Origin: Clostridiales bacterium
GTDB taxonomy: Bacteria; Bacillota; Clostridia; Christensenellales; Aristaeellaceae
Reading direction: 5' to 3'
Length of the DNA stretch: 37,915 nucleotides
Assembly (NCBI GenBank): GCA_015056395.1
Contig: SVGK01000001.1
Span: 1-37,915 of the forward strand
This document shows, piece after piece, positions 12,593 through 20,361 of this stretch (positions within the stretch are counted from its first letter, which is position 1; every line of letters begins with the position of its first letter). Below the pieces are notes generated by a model, which saw nothing but the letters and a program-made list of their open reading frames with translations, was not told the origin of the DNA and did no database searches. The translations under genes were made by a program, and so were the position numbers.

Positions 12593-12623
12593 GAATCGAT
12601 ATATGAGCGAGGTGATCTGTGAT

Positions 12624-15600
12624 ATGACCCGGAATGCAATGTTCAAGCGGTTCGCCACGATGCTGTTGACGCTCTTATTGATCCTGCAGATCGGCACCGC
12701 TCTTTCGGAGGATCATACCGTCGAAACGCGCACGATCGTCTCCACACCCATCCTGAGAGCCGATGGCGAGCTGTGCGAGGTCACCGTATCCTACGGCGAC
12801 GACGCGCGGATCCCCGAGGGCGCGAGCCTGAGAGTCACCGACCTCGCCGCGGACAGCGAGGCGTATGGAAGCGCGCGGGACGCCGTGCTGGCGGATATGC
12901 GCGCGCGCGGCGAAGCGGTGGACGAAGGCACGCTCGGGCTGGCCGCCGTGGACATCGCCATACTCGACGCGGACGGCAACGAGATCGAGCCCGCGGCGCC
13001 CGTGCGGGTGGACATGAGGATCATGGCGCTGCCCGGCGTGGAGGACCTCGGCGATGTCGCGGGCACGCTGGCGGTACAGCATCACGCGGAAGCGGAGGAG
13101 GGCGTGGTCGTGGAGACCGTGTACGACGGGGACGGGAAAGCTTCAGGGAATGTGACCGGCTTGGATATAGGGTTTGAGACCGCGTCCTTCTCGATGTTCA
13201 CGATCAGTTGGAGGAATAACAGTAATACATATAATAGATCTGCCCGTGTCCATTATGTGGATGAGAGTGGAAGGGAACTGACGATCTCTAATCCCAGTAA
13301 TCTCTATCCGACTTTGAATGCGGATTCAACGTCTCCGGCGTACCTGATCTATGATATCGCCGGATACGAGTACTCCTATACTTATAGCAACTATTATGGA
13401 ATCCGAATCGATCCATTATTACGAAAAAGAGATAATCGCTGGCAATATAGGTACAATAATTACTGGTATGAAATAGCTGATAACGATGATATCTACGTCG
13501 TCTACAAGAAAAAGAATGCCATAGCCCAGGGCGGCACCCCGACCGTGAGGCAGTCAGATGATGTCGCGCCGCCGGTCGACCCCAGAATTAACAAGACATC
13601 CACGCGCAACGGGGACGACACGAATACCATCGCACTCAGCCTCATCAGCGACACCGCGGCCCTTGAGGTCGAAAAGCTGGCGGACGTCATTGTGGTGTTC
13701 GACGTATCGGGCAGCATGACTACAAACGATATGGGAGGAACCCGCCTCCAGGCTGCGCAGAATGCTGTCAACAGCCTGGCCGACCAGCTGGCCAAGAAGA
13801 AAAACTCCAACGGCGATCCGCTGGTACGCATGTCGTTGATCCAATTTTCCACCACGGCAAGCTTTGTGATTGAGCATATGACTGATTTGACGGACTCCGG
13901 TTTGAGAGCATTCAAGTCTAAAGTCAACGGGCTTTCCGCCGACGGCGGAACAAACTGGGATCACGCGCTCCAGCTTGCAAACGAAGAAAGCGATTTGGAC
14001 CCCGGACGCGCCACATTCGTCATATTCGTTACAGACGGTGACCCTACGTTCCGCAACACGCGCATGAATGTCGCAAACAATGTCCTTGCGACAGAAGTGT
14101 TCTCTAATAATCAATACTATTTGAGCGATCATGTCTACGGCCCCGGAAGTGATGACAATGCTACCGGTCAGTGTTATGCCGCCGCCGTCTTACAGGGCAA
14201 AGCGATCCGATCGGCGGGAAAGAACCTGTTCACCATAGGCATCTCCAACAGCGTGACGAAGATCTCGGCGTTCAACAGCGACGTCGGCGGCAACGGCGCC
14301 TACCTCGTCGAAAACCAAACCGCATTGGAACAGGCCTTTTCGGACATCGAAGCCTCCATAACTGGTGCGCTGGGCTGGGGCAACATACAGATGACGGACG
14401 GCATCACGAACCTGTCGAACACCGTGCAGAAGACGGGGCTCACACAAGTGGGCGGCGACTTCACCTACTGGATCGCGCCGGCGCCGGGCAACTGGTCCGA
14501 GCTGACCGCGGAACAGAAGAACAGCTACACGCCTGTCGCGTCTGATTTCGTCTCATGGGATCCCGTGGCCGCAGGCGCGGGGCTCGCGGAATACGATGCG
14601 GAAACGGGCGCGGTCAAGTGGAACATGGGCAGCACGTTCATGCCGGAGGCCGGCGTGACATATCAGGTGCGCTTCAAGGTCTGGCCCTCTCAGGAGGCCT
14701 ACGATACGATCGCAAAGCTGAACAACGGTACGCTGAATTATGATACACTGCCACAGGATGTCAAGGCCCAGATCATCAAGAACGGCAGTACCTACACGCT
14801 GAAGACCAACGAGCCGAACGCCCAGACGACTTACCAGTCCGCGACGCGTTCGGGCGACACCGTAACGGCTTCGGGAGACATCCAGACGCTGACATTCCCA
14901 ACGGTAGAGGATCTGAACCTCCACGTCGACAAAATGACGGTCACGAAGAACTGGGTAAACAGTCTGGACCCCGACGCGCGATGGAAATCCGACGTGGAGC
15001 TGCTCCTCACGGATGGCAATGGAAACCTGTACAAAAACATCGAACTGAATGACGCAAACGATTATACGGCCAATGACAACTTCATCTCCTGCGGGCTGGC
15101 GAAGATCGAAAACGGCCAACTGATCATCTATGAAACGGGCCATGATTTCAAGATGACGGAGCCTGCGGAGTATGCATACTATTGGGATCTGGATTCCGAG
15201 GTCTACAGGCCGATGGTCATCGACTCGGTGCTGACCATGCTGATGAAGACGGACGCGCCGGCCGGCATGGGAAGCCGCACATACTATGTATCCGGAGGAA
15301 AGACGTACTACAGGATAGACGGCGGGGTCTATGAGGCGATCGCCACGGGAGACGCCGCGGCCTCGATCACCGCGACCAACATCCGCCGCAGCAACCTGAA
15401 CCTGACGAAGAGGGTACAGGATGAAAACGGAGCTGACGCCGTTTCCTCCGAACCGTTCGAGTTCACCATCCAGATCAACGACACGCAGGATGCCGACGTC
15501 TGGTTCGCCGCGCAGAGGGACGCCAACGATACGAGCACGATCGTGAAGGACCTTGTGACCAACGCGACCGCGGAGGTCGAGGACGGCGAGCCGACCGGAT

Positions 15601-16631
15601 ACTATCACGCGCCCAGCGGCAGCGCGATCACGGTGAAAATCGAGCCCGGATGGAACCTGCGCTTCACGAACCTGCCCAACGGCACGACGTATACGATCAC
15701 GGAAGGCGCAAAAGACGACTATACCTTCGTGAGCGCCGTGATCGACAACGACGGCACATTCTCGGTGACGAACGGCACGACAGGGGCCGGAACGATCAAC
15801 GAGTCCAATACGCAGTACACCGTCACGTACACGAACAGGACCGCCGCGAAGAAGGTGCAGGTCCTGAAGGTCCGCCCGAACGGCACGCCCCTGGCGAACG
15901 CCGAGTTCGCGCTGTATACGCCGAGCGGCTACGAGGCCGATCCGCAGTACGCGGTCAAGACCCGCCTGATATCGGGCGCGGACGGCATGATCGACCTGGG
16001 CAACCTGGCGCACGGCACATACTATCTGGCGGAGACCGCCGCCCCGACCGGCTATGTGCTGCTGCCCGACCCCGTGAAGATCGAAGTGTCGTCGACAGGC
16101 GTCATCTGCACGCAGGGCGACGACGACCTTCCGGTGAGCGGCAATATCACGACCGGCTTCACCGTCACGGTGACCGATACCCCCGCGGCGACCACTCTGC
16201 CCATACCGGTCAAGAAGACGCTGAAGGGCCGCGACATGGAGGCCGACGAGTTCAACTTCGTGCTCCAGCCCATCGACATCAACGGCAACTTAGGCGACGC
16301 TTCCGCAAAGCAGACCACCACCAATCCGGCGGGCGCCGAAAACGAGGAAGTGACATTCAACTTCGCGCTGGACTATACCTACGAAGACATAGCCGCCGCC
16401 CCGTACCACGACACTGCCGGCAACGGCGTGTACTACTACATCGTGTACGAGGAAGAGGGGAATGCGGACGACATCTACTACTCCGAGCTGAAGTACATCG
16501 TCAAGGTCACGCTGAGCTACGATGAAGAAAGCAAGGCGCTCACCGCCACGCCGAAGAACTATCTGTACGACGGGACGGGACAGCTCCCCGCTGACGCGAG
16601 ACAGGGCCTCCGAGAGGATCAGACGGTTTAG
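12624..16631 (+). CDS. large secreted VWA/Cna-type surface adhesin lacking a sorting signal
   Basis: A 1335-residue extracellular protein. A signal peptide (MFKRFATMLLTLLLILQIGTALS) is followed by a globular N region. A von Willebrand A domain has an intact metal site: D360-V-S362-G-S364, T443 and D471 in FVTDGDPT. Prealbumin-like pilin repeats follow: a segment at VTKNWVNSLD near residue 774, one at NLTKRVQDENG near 925, a SpaA-like domain (KVQVLKVRPNGTPLANAEF to ETAAPTGYV) near 1075-1155, and an FctA/Spy0128-like domain (PVKKTLKGRDMEADEFNFVL) from about 1193. The last 20 residues (YDGTGQLPADARQGLREDQ) are odd, and there is no LPxTG motif, membrane anchor or charged tail. The part at about 13190-14200 is more A+T-rich and uses ATT codons. 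The ATG at 12624 is preferred because GAGGTGAT precedes it. Confidence 0.85.
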   Translation: MTRNAMFKRFATMLLTLLLILQIGTALSEDHTVETRTIVSTPILRADGELCEVTVSYGDDARIPEGASLRVTDLAADSEAYGSARDAVLADMRARGEAVDEGTLGLAAVDIAILDADGNEIEPAAPVRVDMRIMALPGVEDLGDVAGTLAVQHHAEAEEGVVVETVYDGDGKASGNVTGLDIGFETASFSMFTISWRNNSNTYNRSARVHYVDESGRELTISNPSNLYPTLNADSTSPAYLIYDIAGYEYSYTYSNYYGIRIDPLLRKRDNRWQYRYNNYWYEIADNDDIYVVYKKKNAIAQGGTPTVRQSDDVAPPVDPRINKTSTRNGDDTNTIALSLISDTAALEVEKLADVIVVFDVSGSMTTNDMGGTRLQAAQNAVNSLADQLAKKKNSNGDPLVRMSLIQFSTTASFVIEHMTDLTDSGLRAFKSKVNGLSADGGTNWDHALQLANEESDLDPGRATFVIFVTDGDPTFRNTRMNVANNVLATEVFSNNQYYLSDHVYGPGSDDNATGQCYAAAVLQGKAIRSAGKNLFTIGISNSVTKISAFNSDVGGNGAYLVENQTALEQAFSDIEASITGALGWGNIQMTDGITNLSNTVQKTGLTQVGGDFTYWIAPAPGNWSELTAEQKNSYTPVASDFVSWDPVAAGAGLAEYDAETGAVKWNMGSTFMPEAGVTYQVRFKVWPSQEAYDTIAKLNNGTLNYDTLPQDVKAQIIKNGSTYTLKTNEPNAQTTYQSATRSGDTVTASGDIQTLTFPTVEDLNLHVDKMTVTKNWVNSLDPDARWKSDVELLLTDGNGNLYKNIELNDANDYTANDNFISCGLAKIENGQLIIYETGHDFKMTEPAEYAYYWDLDSEVYRPMVIDSVLTMLMKTDAPAGMGSRTYYVSGGKTYYRIDGGVYEAIATGDAAASITATNIRRSNLNLTKRVQDENGADAVSSEPFEFTIQINDTQDADVWFAAQRDANDTSTIVKDLVTNATAEVEDGEPTGYYHAPSGSAITVKIEPGWNLRFTNLPNGTTYTITEGAKDDYTFVSAVIDNDGTFSVTNGTTGAGTINESNTQYTVTYTNRTAAKKVQVLKVRPNGTPLANAEFALYTPSGYEADPQYAVKTRLISGADGMIDLGNLAHGTYYLAETAAPTGYVLLPDPVKIEVSSTGVICTQGDDDLPVSGNITTGFTVTVTDTPAATTLPIPVKKTLKGRDMEADEFNFVLQPIDINGNLGDASAKQTTTNPAGAENEEVTFNFALDYTYEDIAAAPYHDTAGNGVYYYIVYEEEGNADDIYYSELKYIVKVTLSYDEESKALTATPKNYLYDGTGQLPADARQGLREDQTV

Positions 16632-16782: not shown

Positions 16783-16815
16783 CTGACTACCGACATACAG
16801 AAGGAGGTGTGGGAG

Positions 16816-17112
16816 TTGACACAGAGGCTTTCGATAAGGCCGTCCAAGGAGCTTCGAACGCATTACGCGCAGATCTCTGCGGAGGCCAAGCAGAATCCGG
16901 TCGCGATCACCGTCAACGGACGGGAGGATATCGTCATACTCGAGCACAGTCAATACATGGAACAACAGCAGCGGATCGAAGAACTGGAAAGCCGTCTTGC
17001 CGTGTATTCACACCTTGCCCAGGCGGCCGATGATGTCAGATTGGGCCGGGTGCAGCCTGCGCAGGATGCCTTTTCCGATATCCTGGATGAACTGAAGGAC
17101 GACGACATATGA
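16816..17112 (+). CDS. Phd/YefM-type antitoxin
   Basis: The 98-residue product has the Phd/YefM layout: an N-terminal DNA-binding fold (RLSIRPSKELRTHYAQISAEAKQNPVAITVNGREDIVILEHSQY) and a charged helical C-terminal tail for toxin binding (ILDELKDDD). Antitoxins of this type neutralise a RelE/ParE-like partner and repress their own operon. The start is TTG at 16816, 8 nt after a perfect AAGGAGG. An in-frame GTG at 16807 overlaps that ribosome site and is rejected. The stop overlaps the toxin ATG by 4 nt (ATGA), indicating translational coupling. Confidence 0.88.
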   Translation: MTQRLSIRPSKELRTHYAQISAEAKQNPVAITVNGREDIVILEHSQYMEQQQRIEELESRLAVYSHLAQAADDVRLGRVQPAQDAFSDILDELKDDDI

Positions 17113-17435
17113 AGGAATGGCAGGTGATCATGACCGATACCGCCAAGAGCGATCTTCGGGAGATCGCCTTCGGTATCGTCGAAGCATCAGGAGATCCGGA
17201 TATCGCTTTGGGCATTGTCATGGAGTTGGAAAAGCGATGCACCATGCTGAACACGCATCCTGAAGCGGGGGCGATCCCAAAGGATCATATGCTGAAGGCC
17301 CTGGGCTATCGATATCTCGCGCACAAACATTATCTGGTCTTCTATCTCATCAGCGCTGCGGAGCACAAGGTGTATATCCATGCCTTCTTCAACGAAAGAA
17401 GGGACTACTTCAGGTTTATGCGCAGGCGCATCTGA
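17109..17435 (+). CDS. RelE/ParE-superfamily toxin
   Basis: The 108-residue product fits the ParE/RelE fold: an N-terminal strand and helix (WQVIMTDTAKSDLREIAFGIVEASGDPDIALGIV), a middle HPEAGAIPKDHMLKALGYRYLAHKHYLVFYLI hairpin and a terminal VYIHAFFNERRDY segment. The arginine and tyrosine-rich C terminus is typical. Members either poison gyrase (ParE) or cut mRNA on the ribosome (RelE). The R-D-Y ending near a final arginine is more common in ParE-like members, but I cannot decide. It overlaps the antitoxin by 4 nt. Confidence 0.87.
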   Translation: MKEWQVIMTDTAKSDLREIAFGIVEASGDPDIALGIVMELEKRCTMLNTHPEAGAIPKDHMLKALGYRYLAHKHYLVFYLISAAEHKVYIHAFFNERRDYFRFMRRRI

Positions 17436-17690
17436 TCTATGGAGAAGAGTATGTATTCGCACATGCCCGTATGGACGCCATTTCTGCCCGTCGTTGCATG
17501 GCGGCATGGAGGCCGCCGCTGCGGGTGGTGTCGATGAACGACCTTCCGTAGGGACGCCATTCATGGCGTCCGCCGCGCGCGAGCGCACTATTTTCATCAC
17601 ACCCCAATAAAAGATACGGCCATTCGCACATATCCATGTCATGCCAAACCGACTATATCGGAACGGATCAAGTAAAGGAGATGGTCATCC
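17436..17690. other. intergenic hairpin-repeat stretch
   Basis: It holds a GGCGGCATGGAGGCCGCC hairpin (17500-17517) and an intact GGACGCC palindrome (17552-17571) followed by GTCCGCCGCGCGCGAGCGCAC-type sequence also found after 11684. The last 60 nt lead to the ribosome site of the next gene (AAAGGAG). No gene is seen. Confidence 0.7.
17500..17571. repeat. two interspersed hairpin repeats
   Basis: GGCGGCATGGAGGCCGCC (17500-17517) matches the variant at 11778-11795. GGACGCCATTCATGGCGTCC (17552-17571) is identical to the copies at 3000, 3111 and 11945. Confidence 0.8.
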
Positions 17691-19010
17691 ATGAAAAGGT
17701 CTCTCACGTTCCTCCTGGTCCTGACGCTCGCCCTGACGCTTCCCGCAGCCGCCGAAGAGGGGCAGGGGAACGGCTTCTTCGGCGGGCTCGGCAGCTGGCT
17801 TGACGATACCCTACAGGCCGCGGGCGACGCCATCGGCGATGCGGCGGACGCCGTGGGCAGCGCCGCAGGCTCGGTAAGCGAAGCGATAGGCAGCGCCGCA
17901 GGCTCGGTAAGCGAAGCGATAGGCAGCGCGGCGGGCTCGGTAGGCGACGCGGTGGGCAGCGCCGCGGGCTCCGTGGGCAATGCGGTTGGCAACGCGATCG
18001 ACAGCGTGAGCACGTTCGCCGTCGACACGTGGAACGCCGCTGACAAGGCCGTGAACGGCATGTGGACCTCCGTGACGGGCACACAGCTGTTCGACGCGGA
18101 CGACCAGGTCTACATGCTCACGGTCGACGAGGACGAGCCCATCACGTTCATGGGCGCGCCGGTCAACGCGGGCAAGGATACGGGCTACAGCAAGGCCGGC
18201 GCGATCGAACAGGGCGACCCGCACTACGGCTGGACGCTTGGGCAGTTTTACATCGAAGGCGCGACAAAGATGATCGTGGACCAGCCGAACGGCAGCGTGA
18301 TATTCCTGAAGACCGTGGGCGACCAGCTCGAGCTGCACTTCGGCCTCACACAGAACATCAACAGGCTCAACGACAGGGACGATCTCGCCGTATGCAGCGA
18401 CAGGGACGGTTTCGACAAATACTTCCAGGTCGAGAAGACCGATATGGGGCGCGGCGCGCTGATCACGCGCTTCACGAACCACCAGCGGCTGGCGGGCGAG
18501 CCGGTCCTCTACACGGACTACCTGTCCGCCGTGGCCGCGGGCAGCGCCGACACCGTGATCCAGTTGAACGAGGAGGGCGATTACGAGGTCGCGCTGGACT
18601 ACGAGCTGCAGGATGCGGGCAAATTCTCCATACCGCAGTACCACGATTACCACATATTCTTCACCTTCTCCGTGCGCAATGGCAACTGCATGGTCTATCT
18701 GTTCGACGCGTCCACAAAGGCGGAGCTGCGCAACGAGACGATCATAGAAAACGGCTTCTCGATAGACTTTGCGCGCTCGCGCTATCTCGAGATCCATGTC
18801 AAGCGCGAGACGCTGGCCGAGGATGGGAAGACGCTGGACGTGCGCTACAACAAGGTCGCGCAGGACGGCGACGAATATACGGACGAGGGCGTATACACGA
18901 TCACGGCAAAGAACATCTACACGAACGAGGAGACGTCCAAGAGGCTGTTCGTGGGCGACGAAGAGGCCTATGCGCGCTATATCGACGGCGGCATCACCGT
19001 GGAGGGATGA
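17691..19010 (+). CDS. secreted protein with alanine-rich 11-residue repeats
   Basis: No known family was recognised. The 439-residue product has a signal peptide (MKRSLTFLLVLTLALTLPAAA), then about four tandem 11-residue units of the form GSAAGSVSEAI (about residues 54-100), encoded by near-identical 33-bp DNA repeats at about 17865-17985. Eleven-residue amphipathic repeats of small residues resemble those of LEA proteins and lipid-binding helices, so surface or membrane association is possible. The remaining 300 residues look like beta-rich globular domains (EDGKTLDVRYNKVAQDGDEY, YTITAKNIYTNEET). There is no anchor or second membrane segment. The next secreted gene starts 3 nt after the stop, so the two are cotranscribed and probably act together. 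Confidence 0.75.
   Translation: MKRSLTFLLVLTLALTLPAAAEEGQGNGFFGGLGSWLDDTLQAAGDAIGDAADAVGSAAGSVSEAIGSAAGSVSEAIGSAAGSVGDAVGSAAGSVGNAVGNAIDSVSTFAVDTWNAADKAVNGMWTSVTGTQLFDADDQVYMLTVDEDEPITFMGAPVNAGKDTGYSKAGAIEQGDPHYGWTLGQFYIEGATKMIVDQPNGSVIFLKTVGDQLELHFGLTQNINRLNDRDDLAVCSDRDGFDKYFQVEKTDMGRGALITRFTNHQRLAGEPVLYTDYLSAVAAGSADTVIQLNEEGDYEVALDYELQDAGKFSIPQYHDYHIFFTFSVRNGNCMVYLFDASTKAELRNETIIENGFSIDFARSRYLEIHVKRETLAEDGKTLDVRYNKVAQDGDEYTDEGVYTITAKNIYTNEETSKRLFVGDEEAYARYIDGGITVEG
17865..17985 (+). repeat. 33-bp coding tandem repeat
   Basis: About four copies of a 33-bp unit beginning GGCAGCGCCGCAGGCTC encode GSAAGSV(S/G)(E/D/N)A(I/V). The first two are nearly identical, suggesting recent slippage; copy number may vary between strains. 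Confidence 0.75.
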
Positions 19011-19013
19011 GGC

Positions 19014-19712
19014 ATGTGCAGAAACATATTGGCAAAGCTGCTCGCCGTTGTGCTGCTCTTCACCGCGACCGCACCGTATGCGTGCGCGGAGGAGGGCCTC
19101 GTCATACAAAACGTGAGCGACCCTGAAACGCTGCAGCTCATACAGGACACGCTCTACGGCGAGATGGAGAGCGCGTTCGCCAGCGACGACTACGCGATCG
19201 AGGACATACGCGCGGTCTACATATCCCGGGAATACCTCGAAGAGGTCGCGTTCAACAGCCGCGCGAACATCTACTTCGGCTATACGCTTGCGGAGGTGGA
19301 AGAGGCCTTCGGCGAGGAAAAGTTCGTGTTCACGGTGGGAGAAGACGGGCAGACGACAGTCAAGGCATTCGAGGCGTATGACGATACTTTCGACAGGATC
19401 GTGCGAAATCTTGCGGAAGGTGGAGGTGTGATACTGACTTTTGTCAGGATCGCAGTCAAGATCCCCGGCATAGGCTCAAGGTATTTGAAAGTCATGTTTG
19501 CGTTGGGCGCTGCCGGAGGAACGCTCCAGGGATTCCAAACTGCGATCAAGGTGGGTTTGTTCACTGCGGCTGTCAAGGGGATTGAGACAGGTGATTTCGA
19601 CCAGACCATGAAGGTTTCCGCACTGGCGGCGAGTGAAGGCTTCAAGTGGGGCGCCGTCGCTGGTTCGGTCGAAGGCGCCGCGATAGGCGGACTGACAATG
19701 GTCGGACTGTGA
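19014..19712 (+). CDS. secreted protein with glycine-zipper C terminus
   Basis: No family was recognised. The 232-residue product has a signal peptide (MCRNILAKLLAVVLLFTATAPYACA), with cysteines that might instead be read as a lipobox-like end. An acidic alpha/beta region follows to about residue 135. The C-terminal 95 residues are hydrophobic and rich in small residues with GxxxG-like spacing (ALGAAGGTLQGF, FKWGAVAGSVEGAAIGG), resembling membrane-inserting or pre-toxin linker segments of secreted polymorphic toxins. It ends just where such proteins carry a toxin domain. Codon use becomes less GC-rich from about 19430. The ATG follows GGAGGGATGAGGC, overlapping the end of the preceding gene. 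Confidence 0.7.
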   Translation: MCRNILAKLLAVVLLFTATAPYACAEEGLVIQNVSDPETLQLIQDTLYGEMESAFASDDYAIEDIRAVYISREYLEEVAFNSRANIYFGYTLAEVEEAFGEEKFVFTVGEDGQTTVKAFEAYDDTFDRIVRNLAEGGGVILTFVRIAVKIPGIGSRYLKVMFALGAAGGTLQGFQTAIKVGLFTAAVKGIETGDFDQTMKVSALAASEGFKWGAVAGSVEGAAIGGLTMVGL

Positions 19713-19751
19713 CCTCCTTGTGCAAAAGCCCCTCCTTTGTGCAACAATAAA

Positions 19752-19796
19752 CGGACAGAGGCCCGATCAGCACGACCGGGTCTCTGTCCGCTTTTG
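19752..19796. terminator. bidirectional terminator
   Basis: CGGACAGAGGCCCG pairs with CGGGTCTCTGTCCG (one G-T pair) and is followed by CTTTTG. It lies between convergent genes (the secreted protein and pgsA) and can serve both, although the minus-strand side has only a short T-run. Confidence 0.8.
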
Positions 19797-19803
19797 TCCA
19801 TTC

Positions 19804-20361
19804 TCACATATCCCTTATGCAATCGAAATTCCTTATGATATACTCCGCGCCGCTCAGCACCGTCATCGCCGCGGCGATGTAGGTCACCGTCTGCGCCAGT
19901 ATCACGCCGGGCTGCCCCAGCAGCGGTTCCTCCGCGGCGACGGGCGTCAGCAGGAAAAGCAGTATCACGGAGGCCATCTGCGTCACGGTCTTGATCTTGC
20001 CCAGCCATCCGGCCGCGATCACATTGCCCGTGCCGGCCGCGACCAGGCGGAAGCCGCTCACGGCGAACTCGCGCGCCAGCATCAGTACGCATATCCACGA
20101 GGGCATGCGTCCCTGCCCCACCAGCGCCACCTGCGCCGCCATGACCAGCAGCTTGTCCGCTATGGGGTCGATGAACTTGCCGAAATCCGTGATGAGGTTG
20201 CGCCGCCGTGCGATCTGCCCGTCCAGCATGTCCGTGAGCGACGCCAGCGCGAACACGCCCACCGCGGCATACTGCGCCCACGGCTCGGGCCTGAGCGCGA
20301 ATGCCATGAATACGGGGATCATGCAGACGCGCAGCATGGATAGTTTGTTTGGAAGGTTCAT
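19804..20361 (-). CDS. pgsA: CDP-diacylglycerol--glycerol-3-phosphate 3-phosphatidyltransferase
   Basis: Makes phosphatidylglycerol phosphate from CDP-diacylglycerol and glycerol-3-phosphate, the committed step to phosphatidylglycerol and cardiolipin. The CDP-alcohol phosphotransferase signature is perfect: D44-x2-D47-G-x2-A-R-x8-G61-x3-D65-x3-D69. The 185 residues contain about five hydrophobic membrane segments, matching PgsA. The N-terminal MNLPNKLSMLRVCMIPVF is characteristic of the family. The ATG at 20361 follows GGAGGAC. It lies on the minus strand, convergent with the secreted-protein pair and sharing their terminator. A short, apparently frameshifted open frame lies directly upstream. 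Confidence 0.93.
   Translation of the reverse strand: MNLPNKLSMLRVCMIPVFMAFALRPEPWAQYAAVGVFALASLTDMLDGQIARRRNLITDFGKFIDPIADKLLVMAAQVALVGQGRMPSWICVLMLAREFAVSGFRLVAAGTGNVIAAGWLGKIKTVTQMASVILLFLLTPVAAEEPLLGQPGVILAQTVTYIAAAMTVLSGAEYIIRNFDCIRDM

What the first reader, a model, noticed from the sequence alone, without database searches (positions are those of the whole stretch)
17691..19712. Two-gene secreted cassette with membrane-active looking segments
Two unrecognised proteins with signal peptides lie 3 nt apart. The first carries alanine/glycine 11-residue amphipathic repeats, the second a small-residue, GxxxG-like hydrophobic C terminus. Together they could form a surface or target-membrane complex. 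They sit beside a toxin-antitoxin pair and an adhesin, a typical accessory setting.
Basis: inference. Interest (0 to 1): 0.6.

Follow-up and report, generated by a model that had tools for sequence, protein, structure and literature searches.

The report
Disarmed two-gene surface toxin carrier
Two secreted bacterial proteins of unknown role turn out to be the carrier half of a widespread toxin-delivery system of gut bacteria; in this copy the toxin tip and its antidote gene are missing, while a complete copy sits elsewhere in the same genome.

Summary
The two ORFs (A 17691-19010, B 19014-19712) are real, 3 nt apart, with signal peptides, amphipathic 11-residue repeats in A and a GxxxG-rich hydrophobic C terminus in B. 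No Pfam, NCBIfam or PDB-sequence family was credibly matched. Relatives explain them. The same genome holds a second A-B pair whose B continues into a Pfam LHH nuclease, followed by a SUKH-type immunity gene. Across 87 distinct loci, mostly gut and rumen anaerobes, A lies directly upstream of B in 82 and is fused to it in one. The B tail is an LHH nuclease (65), a Tox-REase-10-like nuclease (17; Imm70 next door where found) or HNH-like (1). Tail type switches at least 8 times on the A tree: tip swapping, the hallmark of polymorphic toxins. In most loci A carries a C-terminal membrane anchor and B a lipobox. B's hydrophobic segment resembles the pre-toxin segment of Rhs toxins. In the window, B stops where the toxin should begin, no toxin or immunity remnant follows, and B's membrane motif has drifted, while A is nearly intact. 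I read it as a disarmed copy of an apparently undescribed two-component polymorphic toxin carrier, not a stand-alone membrane complex.

The parts
17691..19010 (+). Gene A: secreted partner protein, 439 aa
   Evidence: ORF; homologues directly upstream of B in 82 of 87 loci
17691..17753 (+). A: signal peptide, about residues 1-21
   Evidence: by inspection of the sequence
17856..17971 (+). A: 33-nt tandem repeats = Ala/Gly 11-residue amphipathic helix repeats
18147..18992 (+). A: conserved core, residues 153-434, all-beta, probably two Ig/FnIII-like sandwiches
   Evidence: own HMM; AlphaFold2 pLDDT mostly over 90; PDB matches only at common-fold level
19014..19712 (+). Gene B: toxin-carrier protein without toxin tip, 232 aa
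   Evidence: ORF; relatives 38-48% identical continue into a nuclease
19014..19088 (+). B: signal peptide, about residues 1-25 (most relatives have a lipobox here)
   Evidence: by inspection
19113..19403 (+). B: conserved N-terminal domain
   Evidence: 1 of 21 family-conserved positions changed
19404..19703 (+). B: hydrophobic, GxxxG-rich pre-toxin module, drifted in this copy (R and K inside the most conserved motif)
   Evidence: 6 of 27 conserved positions changed; similar module seen after Rhs-like cores
19777..19790 (+). possible terminator hairpin after B
   Evidence: weak: 4 found, 2.1 expected in shuffles

Best explanation
The pair is the carrier part of a Sec-exported, two-component polymorphic toxin system, here without its toxin. 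In the armed family, A (Ig-like core) and B are made as one operon and exported by Sec; in most members A is held by a C-terminal membrane helix and B by a lipid anchor, and in the window's branch both look simply secreted. B's N-terminal domain is conserved and I infer that it docks on A. Its hydrophobic Gly-zipper-like module would carry or help the C-terminal nuclease across a neighbour's membrane. A SUKH or Imm70 gene behind B protects siblings. In the window the tip and the immunity gene are gone and B ends at the tip junction, so this copy is disarmed: a relic, or a carrier kept for another use; the armed copy lies on contig C107 of the same genome. Shown by sequence: homology, gene order, tip swapping, immunity pairing, absence of tip and immunity here. 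Inferred: A-B binding, membrane passage, antibacterial target, fate of the disarmed copy.
For: Paralogous pair in the same genome, A 42% and B 48% identical; that B has an LHH nuclease, E 6.1e-24, and a SUKH gene next; these are the only LHH and SUKH_5 matches in the genome. A and B were found in the same 7 of 100 genomes. 87 distinct loci: A directly upstream of B in 82, fused in 1 (L105), not in 4, of which L041 and L095 are cut by the contig end, L043 keeps only a frame resembling A's end, and L074 has the order B-Imm70-A. LHH in 64 of 85 B proteins; of 68 downstream ORFs scanned, SUKH_5 matches 48 and Imm70 5. The Tox-REase-10 motif and its Imm70 partner match the published table (PMC3482391, passages). 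REase-10 tails need 12 changes on the A tree, at least 8 forced by starred branches, shuffled mean 14.0; three pairs of close loci keep B cores 62-69% alike while tails fall to 19-28% (five pairs compared). The B module matches stretches in Rhs-like proteins. No LHH, SUKH or REase-10 remnant in the window (best E 0.19; 0.03 in 19501-20000). Window A changes 1 of 64 conserved positions, B 7 of 51.
Against: No experiment shows toxicity, A-B binding or delivery for any member. The Gly-zipper module is modelled poorly (pLDDT about 36-74). A core has no confident structural relative, so its role is a guess. The window copy itself fails two defining tests (no toxin, no immunity gene). The lost tip is inferred from relatives; a never-acquired tip would look the same. 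The contig is from a draft genome and reads were not available. An immunity gene could not be identified behind every B.
Confidence: 0.8

Rival explanations
1. The tail-less B is itself the toxin: its Gly-zipper segment inserts into a target membrane and depolarises it, as reported for the T7SS effector TelE.
For: 7 GxxxG in 107 residues; Gly-zipper effectors TelE and Tde1 permeabilise membranes (PMC10434224, PMC10240207; abstracts).
Against: The module's most conserved hydrophobic motif is degraded exactly in this copy (R, K); no immunity-like gene follows; no LXG domain or other T7SS match in the B proteins.
Confidence: 0.08
2. One reading: a structural or adhesive surface complex with no toxin link, acquired with the neighbouring adhesin.
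For: A has Ig-like all-beta domains and amphipathic helices; A is the better conserved partner here; an adhesin lies upstream.
Against: 83 of 87 B relatives (window included in the 87) carry a nuclease-type tail, with immunity genes behind many of them.
Confidence: 0.06
3. The tip-less pair is kept on purpose: a decoy or surface competitor of incoming carriers, or a landing site into which new tips recombine.
For: Window A keeps 63 of 64 conserved positions and B's N domain 20 of 21; L019 is another tidy tip-less pair grouped with the window, support 83 and long branches; tips swap often.
Against: Single copies only; B module drift argues for relaxed selection; L014 and L029 show ordinary decay of tips in progress.
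Confidence: 0.12
4. Assembly artefact: the tip was lost in assembly or binning of this draft contig.
For: Draft genome, 346 contigs, 80% complete.
Against: The contig runs on through a possible terminator hairpin and into a CDP-alcohol phosphatidyltransferase gene within 100 bp; B's module has diverged, which an artefact would not cause.
Confidence: 0.04

Closest known systems
Polymorphic toxin systems (Zhang et al. 2012, PMC3482391), Tox-LHH/Imm-SUKH and Tox-REase-10/Imm70
   Same: Same tips and same immunity partners in relatives; constant N-terminal part, swapped C-terminal nuclease
   Different: Carrier domains A and B match no Pfam or NCBIfam model in the window proteins; a dedicated upstream surface partner; the window copy has no tip and no immunity gene
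SitA lipoprotein toxins of myxobacteria (PMC8546572)
   Same: Most armed B proteins look like lipoproteins with constant N-terminal and variable C-terminal nuclease parts, like SitA escort domains and tips
   Different: SitA moves by outer-membrane exchange in myxobacteria; here mostly Clostridia and other gut anaerobes with a partner A; no sequence link was tested; window B has no clear lipobox
Gly-zipper effectors: Tde1 (T6SS, PMC10240207) and TelE (T7SS, PMC10434224)
   Same: GxxxG-rich hydrophobic segment next to or within a toxin
   Different: No T6SS or T7SS signal; the segment lies between carrier domain and nuclease tip
Rhs/YD-repeat-like proteins of Clostridia (L112, L114, L115)
   Same: Similar pre-toxin hydrophobic module just before the variable tail
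   Different: Rhs-like core in place of the A-B carrier; only about 100 residues are shared

Membership tests
Polymorphic toxin system (A-B family as a whole) | Constant N-terminal part joined to interchangeable C-terminal toxin domains | tested here: met
   LHH 65, REase-10-like 17, HNH-like 1, none or broken 4 of 87 loci; at least 8 forced switches on the A tree
Polymorphic toxin system (A-B family as a whole) | Cognate immunity gene directly downstream | tested here: met
   SUKH_5 48 and Imm70 5 of 68 downstream ORFs scanned
Polymorphic toxin system (A-B family as a whole) | Toxicity and neutralisation by the immunity protein | not testable with these tools
   needs bench work
Polymorphic toxin (the window copy itself) | C-terminal toxin domain present | tested here: not met
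   B ends at residue 232; no LHH or REase-10 remnant
Polymorphic toxin (the window copy itself) | Immunity gene adjacent | tested here: not met
   No SUKH remnant; the next recognised gene is a CDP-alcohol phosphatidyltransferase on the other strand
Polymorphic toxin (the window copy itself) | Homologous carrier domains A and B in operon order | tested here: met
T7SS LXG effector | N-terminal LXG/WXG domain | tested here: not met
   Pfam finds only LHH and one DUF6491 match among 85 B proteins; window B has a signal peptide instead
SitA lipoprotein toxin | Lipobox and escort domain | tested here: inconclusive
   Lipobox in most relatives, not clear in window B; escort domains not compared
CDI two-partner secretion (CdiB/CdiA) | Outer-membrane CdiB porin and long filamentous CdiA | tested here: not met
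   A core is modelled as a soluble beta-sandwich pair and no Pfam porin matches; unfused B proteins are 211-481 aa
Gly-zipper pore-forming toxin | GxxxG array that permeabilises membranes | tested here: inconclusive
   GxxxG array present; activity not testable

The most novel reading that the evidence does not exclude
An undescribed, Sec-dependent, surface-tethered two-protein toxin delivery system, widespread in gut Clostridia and also seen in Coriobacteria and Chloroflexota: A is a dedicated delivery or recognition partner for lipoprotein-anchored polymorphic nucleases, and tip-less pairs such as the window's persist as decoys or as landing sites for new tips.
Probability: 0.4. Interest if true: 0.75.

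Novelty: new variant of a known kind. Interest (0 to 1): 0.55.

Why it matters
How Gram-positive gut bacteria deliver nuclease toxins other than by T7SS or Rhs proteins is poorly known (my own knowledge of the field). A two-gene carrier with a conserved partner without a clear structural relative, found in culturable genera such as Ruminococcus (for example on the R. albus 7 plasmid pRUMAL01), would make that testable, and tip-less copies let one ask what the carrier does without a toxin. Public annotation there names B as a nuclease and A as hypothetical, so the link between the two is hidden.

Tried and rejected
Phage tape-measure origin of A: matches cover only the Ala/Gly helix; rejected as compositional. 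A known fold for A: Foldseek best E 6.2e-3 with TM about 0.13-0.17, VIA-align best Z 6.3 at 4.9 A over 171 residues; only common Ig/FnIII arrangements, and an unlisted family is not excluded. B model against PDB: nothing, best E 0.3; its hydrophobic part is of low confidence. Folding the natural A-B fusion L105 for an interface: alignments A5, A7 and A9 misplaced the A rows, and A6 and A8 looked sound but shallow, so the second folding job went to B. Phage records: no match of the B carrier. Plasmids: one, R. albus 7. Viral contigs gave 4 contigs, not examined for phage genes.

Weak points. The lipobox test was a hand-made pattern. A first version gave anchored A with lipobox 48, anchored without 8, free with 8, free without 13, other classes 10. 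A looser version on 74 pairs complete at both ends, with L062, L069, L073 and L074 dropped, gave 54, 2, 8 and 10, Fisher p 3e-6, not corrected for relatedness, and some calls are visibly doubtful both ways: L014, L020 and L042 called lipobox; L032 and L097 missed. Anchoring changes at least 7 times on the A tree. Tail labels for the tree were typed by hand; L029, whose frame is broken, was counted as LHH there. The motif pattern labelled 12 tails REase-10; five more (L071, L072, L073, L100, L106) were added by eye because their motif reads KAIEVKNY. Boundary errors in L097 make its row unusable. Phylum-wide the system is rare: 2 of 398 genomes matched, one of them only in the module. Five text searches aimed at an earlier description of this pair listed none that I recognised by title or abstract; two more on the parts gave papers cited here. 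The library holds open-licence PMC papers only. Of PMC3482391 I saw passages; of PMC10240207, PMC8546572, PMC10434224 and PMC7073777 abstracts and outlines; all others only as search listings.

Full report
What is there. A (17691-19010, 439 aa) and B (19014-19712, 232 aa) are open, same-strand ORFs 3 nt apart. Both have signal-peptide-like starts. A has a 33-nt tandem repeat coding for Ala/Gly 11-residue units whose helical moment exceeds all 1000 shuffles; B's last 107 residues hold 7 GxxxG against 3.1 expected (30 of 2000 shuffles as high). Neither protein reaches a curated family cut-off in Pfam, neither matches NCBIfam, and neither has a credible PDB sequence match.

The key came from the same genome. 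A second A-B pair lies on contig C107 (A 42%, B 48% identical). There B is 385 aa and ends in a Pfam LHH nuclease, E 6.1e-24, followed by a SUKH-family gene. These are the only LHH and SUKH_5 matches found in this 2.8-Mb, 80%-complete genome. So window B corresponds to the part of B in front of the nuclease.

Spread and linkage. Of 100 relatives (own genome included), A and B each match in 7, the same 7. In 396 genomes of the order, A matches in 7 (6 well, 1 weak and partial) and B in 10 (7 well, 3 only over the hydrophobic module); the 6 good A genomes all have B, and the seventh B (G531) starts 313 bases from its contig end, so that A would lie off the contig. A scan of 84,980 species genomes with the B core found 122 relatives and returned the best 80, by record title from Ruminococcus, Lachnospiraceae, Oscillospiraceae, Christensenella, Coriobacteria, Erysipelotrichaceae, Anaerococcus and Flexilinea, among others; viral contigs gave 4. 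With the 8 loci and after removing 5 duplicates (L027, L040, L058, L064, L108), 87 loci remain: A directly upstream of B in 82, fused in L105, and 4 exceptions, two of which are cut by the contig end (L041, L095), one (L043) keeps only a frame resembling A's end, one (L074) reads B-Imm70-A. Of 74 measured A-B gaps, 64 lie between -4 and +27 nt.

Swappable tips with matching antidotes. Tails fall into LHH (65 of 87), a type with the motif E, Q, D, ExKNY, R, DxRG that the literature calls Tox-REase-10 (17; 12 by pattern, 5 by eye), an HNH-like one (L089), and none or broken (window, L014, L019, L029). Pfam confirms LHH in 64 of 85 B proteins scanned. Of 68 downstream ORFs scanned, SUKH_5 matches 48 and Imm70 5; the Imm70 genes tested by name (L070, L074, L105) follow REase-10 tails, as in the published table (PMC3482391, passages). 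On a tree of 79 A cores the REase-10 label needs 12 changes, at least 8 forced by starred branches, close to random labels (mean 14.0). Pairs of close loci with different tips keep A and B cores while the tail identity collapses, for example L045/L053: A core 85%, B core 69%, tail 28%.

Where the proteins sit. In most loci A ends in a hydrophobic helix with a basic tail and B begins with a lipobox (54 of 74 pairs by a rough pattern; 48 by a stricter one). In the window's branch both look simply secreted, and A instead has amphipathic repeats, or DUF6273 and TPR-like front parts in others. I infer two ways of staying at the cell surface; this is not shown.

What the parts look like. AlphaFold2 gives A a confident all-beta core (about residues 151-430, mostly over 90 pLDDT), best compared with pairs of Ig/FnIII-like domains, but at scores that mean no more than a common arrangement. 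In B the nuclease part is confident, the N domain fair, the hydrophobic module poor, and no PDB match was found. The module alone recurs in other proteins: weak matches in G108, G664, G660 and G723 include Rhs/YD-repeat-like proteins in which it follows the repeat core (L112, L114, L115; the Rhs reading is mine from the sequence). This supports a pre-toxin, membrane-passage role, in line with Gly-zipper effectors (PMC10240207, abstract).

State of the window copy. No LHH, SUKH or REase-10 remnant lies behind B (best E 0.03 in 19501-20000; 0.19 for the whole window). A possible hairpin terminator and a CDP-alcohol phosphatidyltransferase gene on the other strand follow at once. Window A changes 1 of 64 strongly conserved positions; B changes 7 of 51, third worst of 65 rows, 6 of 27 in the module and 1 of 21 in the N domain, including a charged residue in the otherwise hydrophobic motif. 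L014 and L029 show tips broken in place; L019 is another clean tip-less pair that groups with the window at support 83, with long branches. So loss of tips happens repeatedly, and this copy is best called disarmed. Whether it still has a use is open.

Verdict. New carrier class of a known kind of system (polymorphic toxins), seen in the window in a tip-less form. Works like: a surface-tethered polymorphic toxin, closest in idea to SitA lipoprotein toxins (PMC8546572, abstract). Membership of the window copy as an armed toxin: tested, not met.

Noticed in passing
window 17497-17605: Intergenic stretch upstream of A belongs to a dispersed repeat family: 71 matches (self included) in the same genome.
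   Followed up: partly
window 16807-17435: Phd/YefM antitoxin and ParE toxin pair; not seen beside A-B in the seven relative loci.
   Followed up: partly
window 12603-16631: 1342-aa VWA/SpaA/FctA surface protein that ends soon after the FctA domain; I saw no LPXTG-like sorting signal at its end.
   Followed up: partly
L105 4786-7041: Natural A-B fusion of 751 aa with a REase-10-like tail and an Imm70 gene behind it.
   Followed up: partly
L083 and L103, ORF behind B: UPF0167-like proteins appear to stand where SUKH is expected behind LHH tails (two members matched, assigned to these loci by me from their sequence): a possible alternative immunity family.
   Followed up: no
L071 and L073, ORF behind B: Probable EcsC-family proteins behind REase-10-like tails, in place of Imm70 (two members matched, assigned to these loci by me).
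   Followed up: no
L020 3473-5845 (A paralogue on C107): A carries zinc-ribbon-like segments and a DUF6273 domain in front of the core; L015, L117 and L074 look similar by eye.
   Followed up: no
L079 2895-5756: 953-aa A protein with the front part and core apparently duplicated.
   Followed up: no
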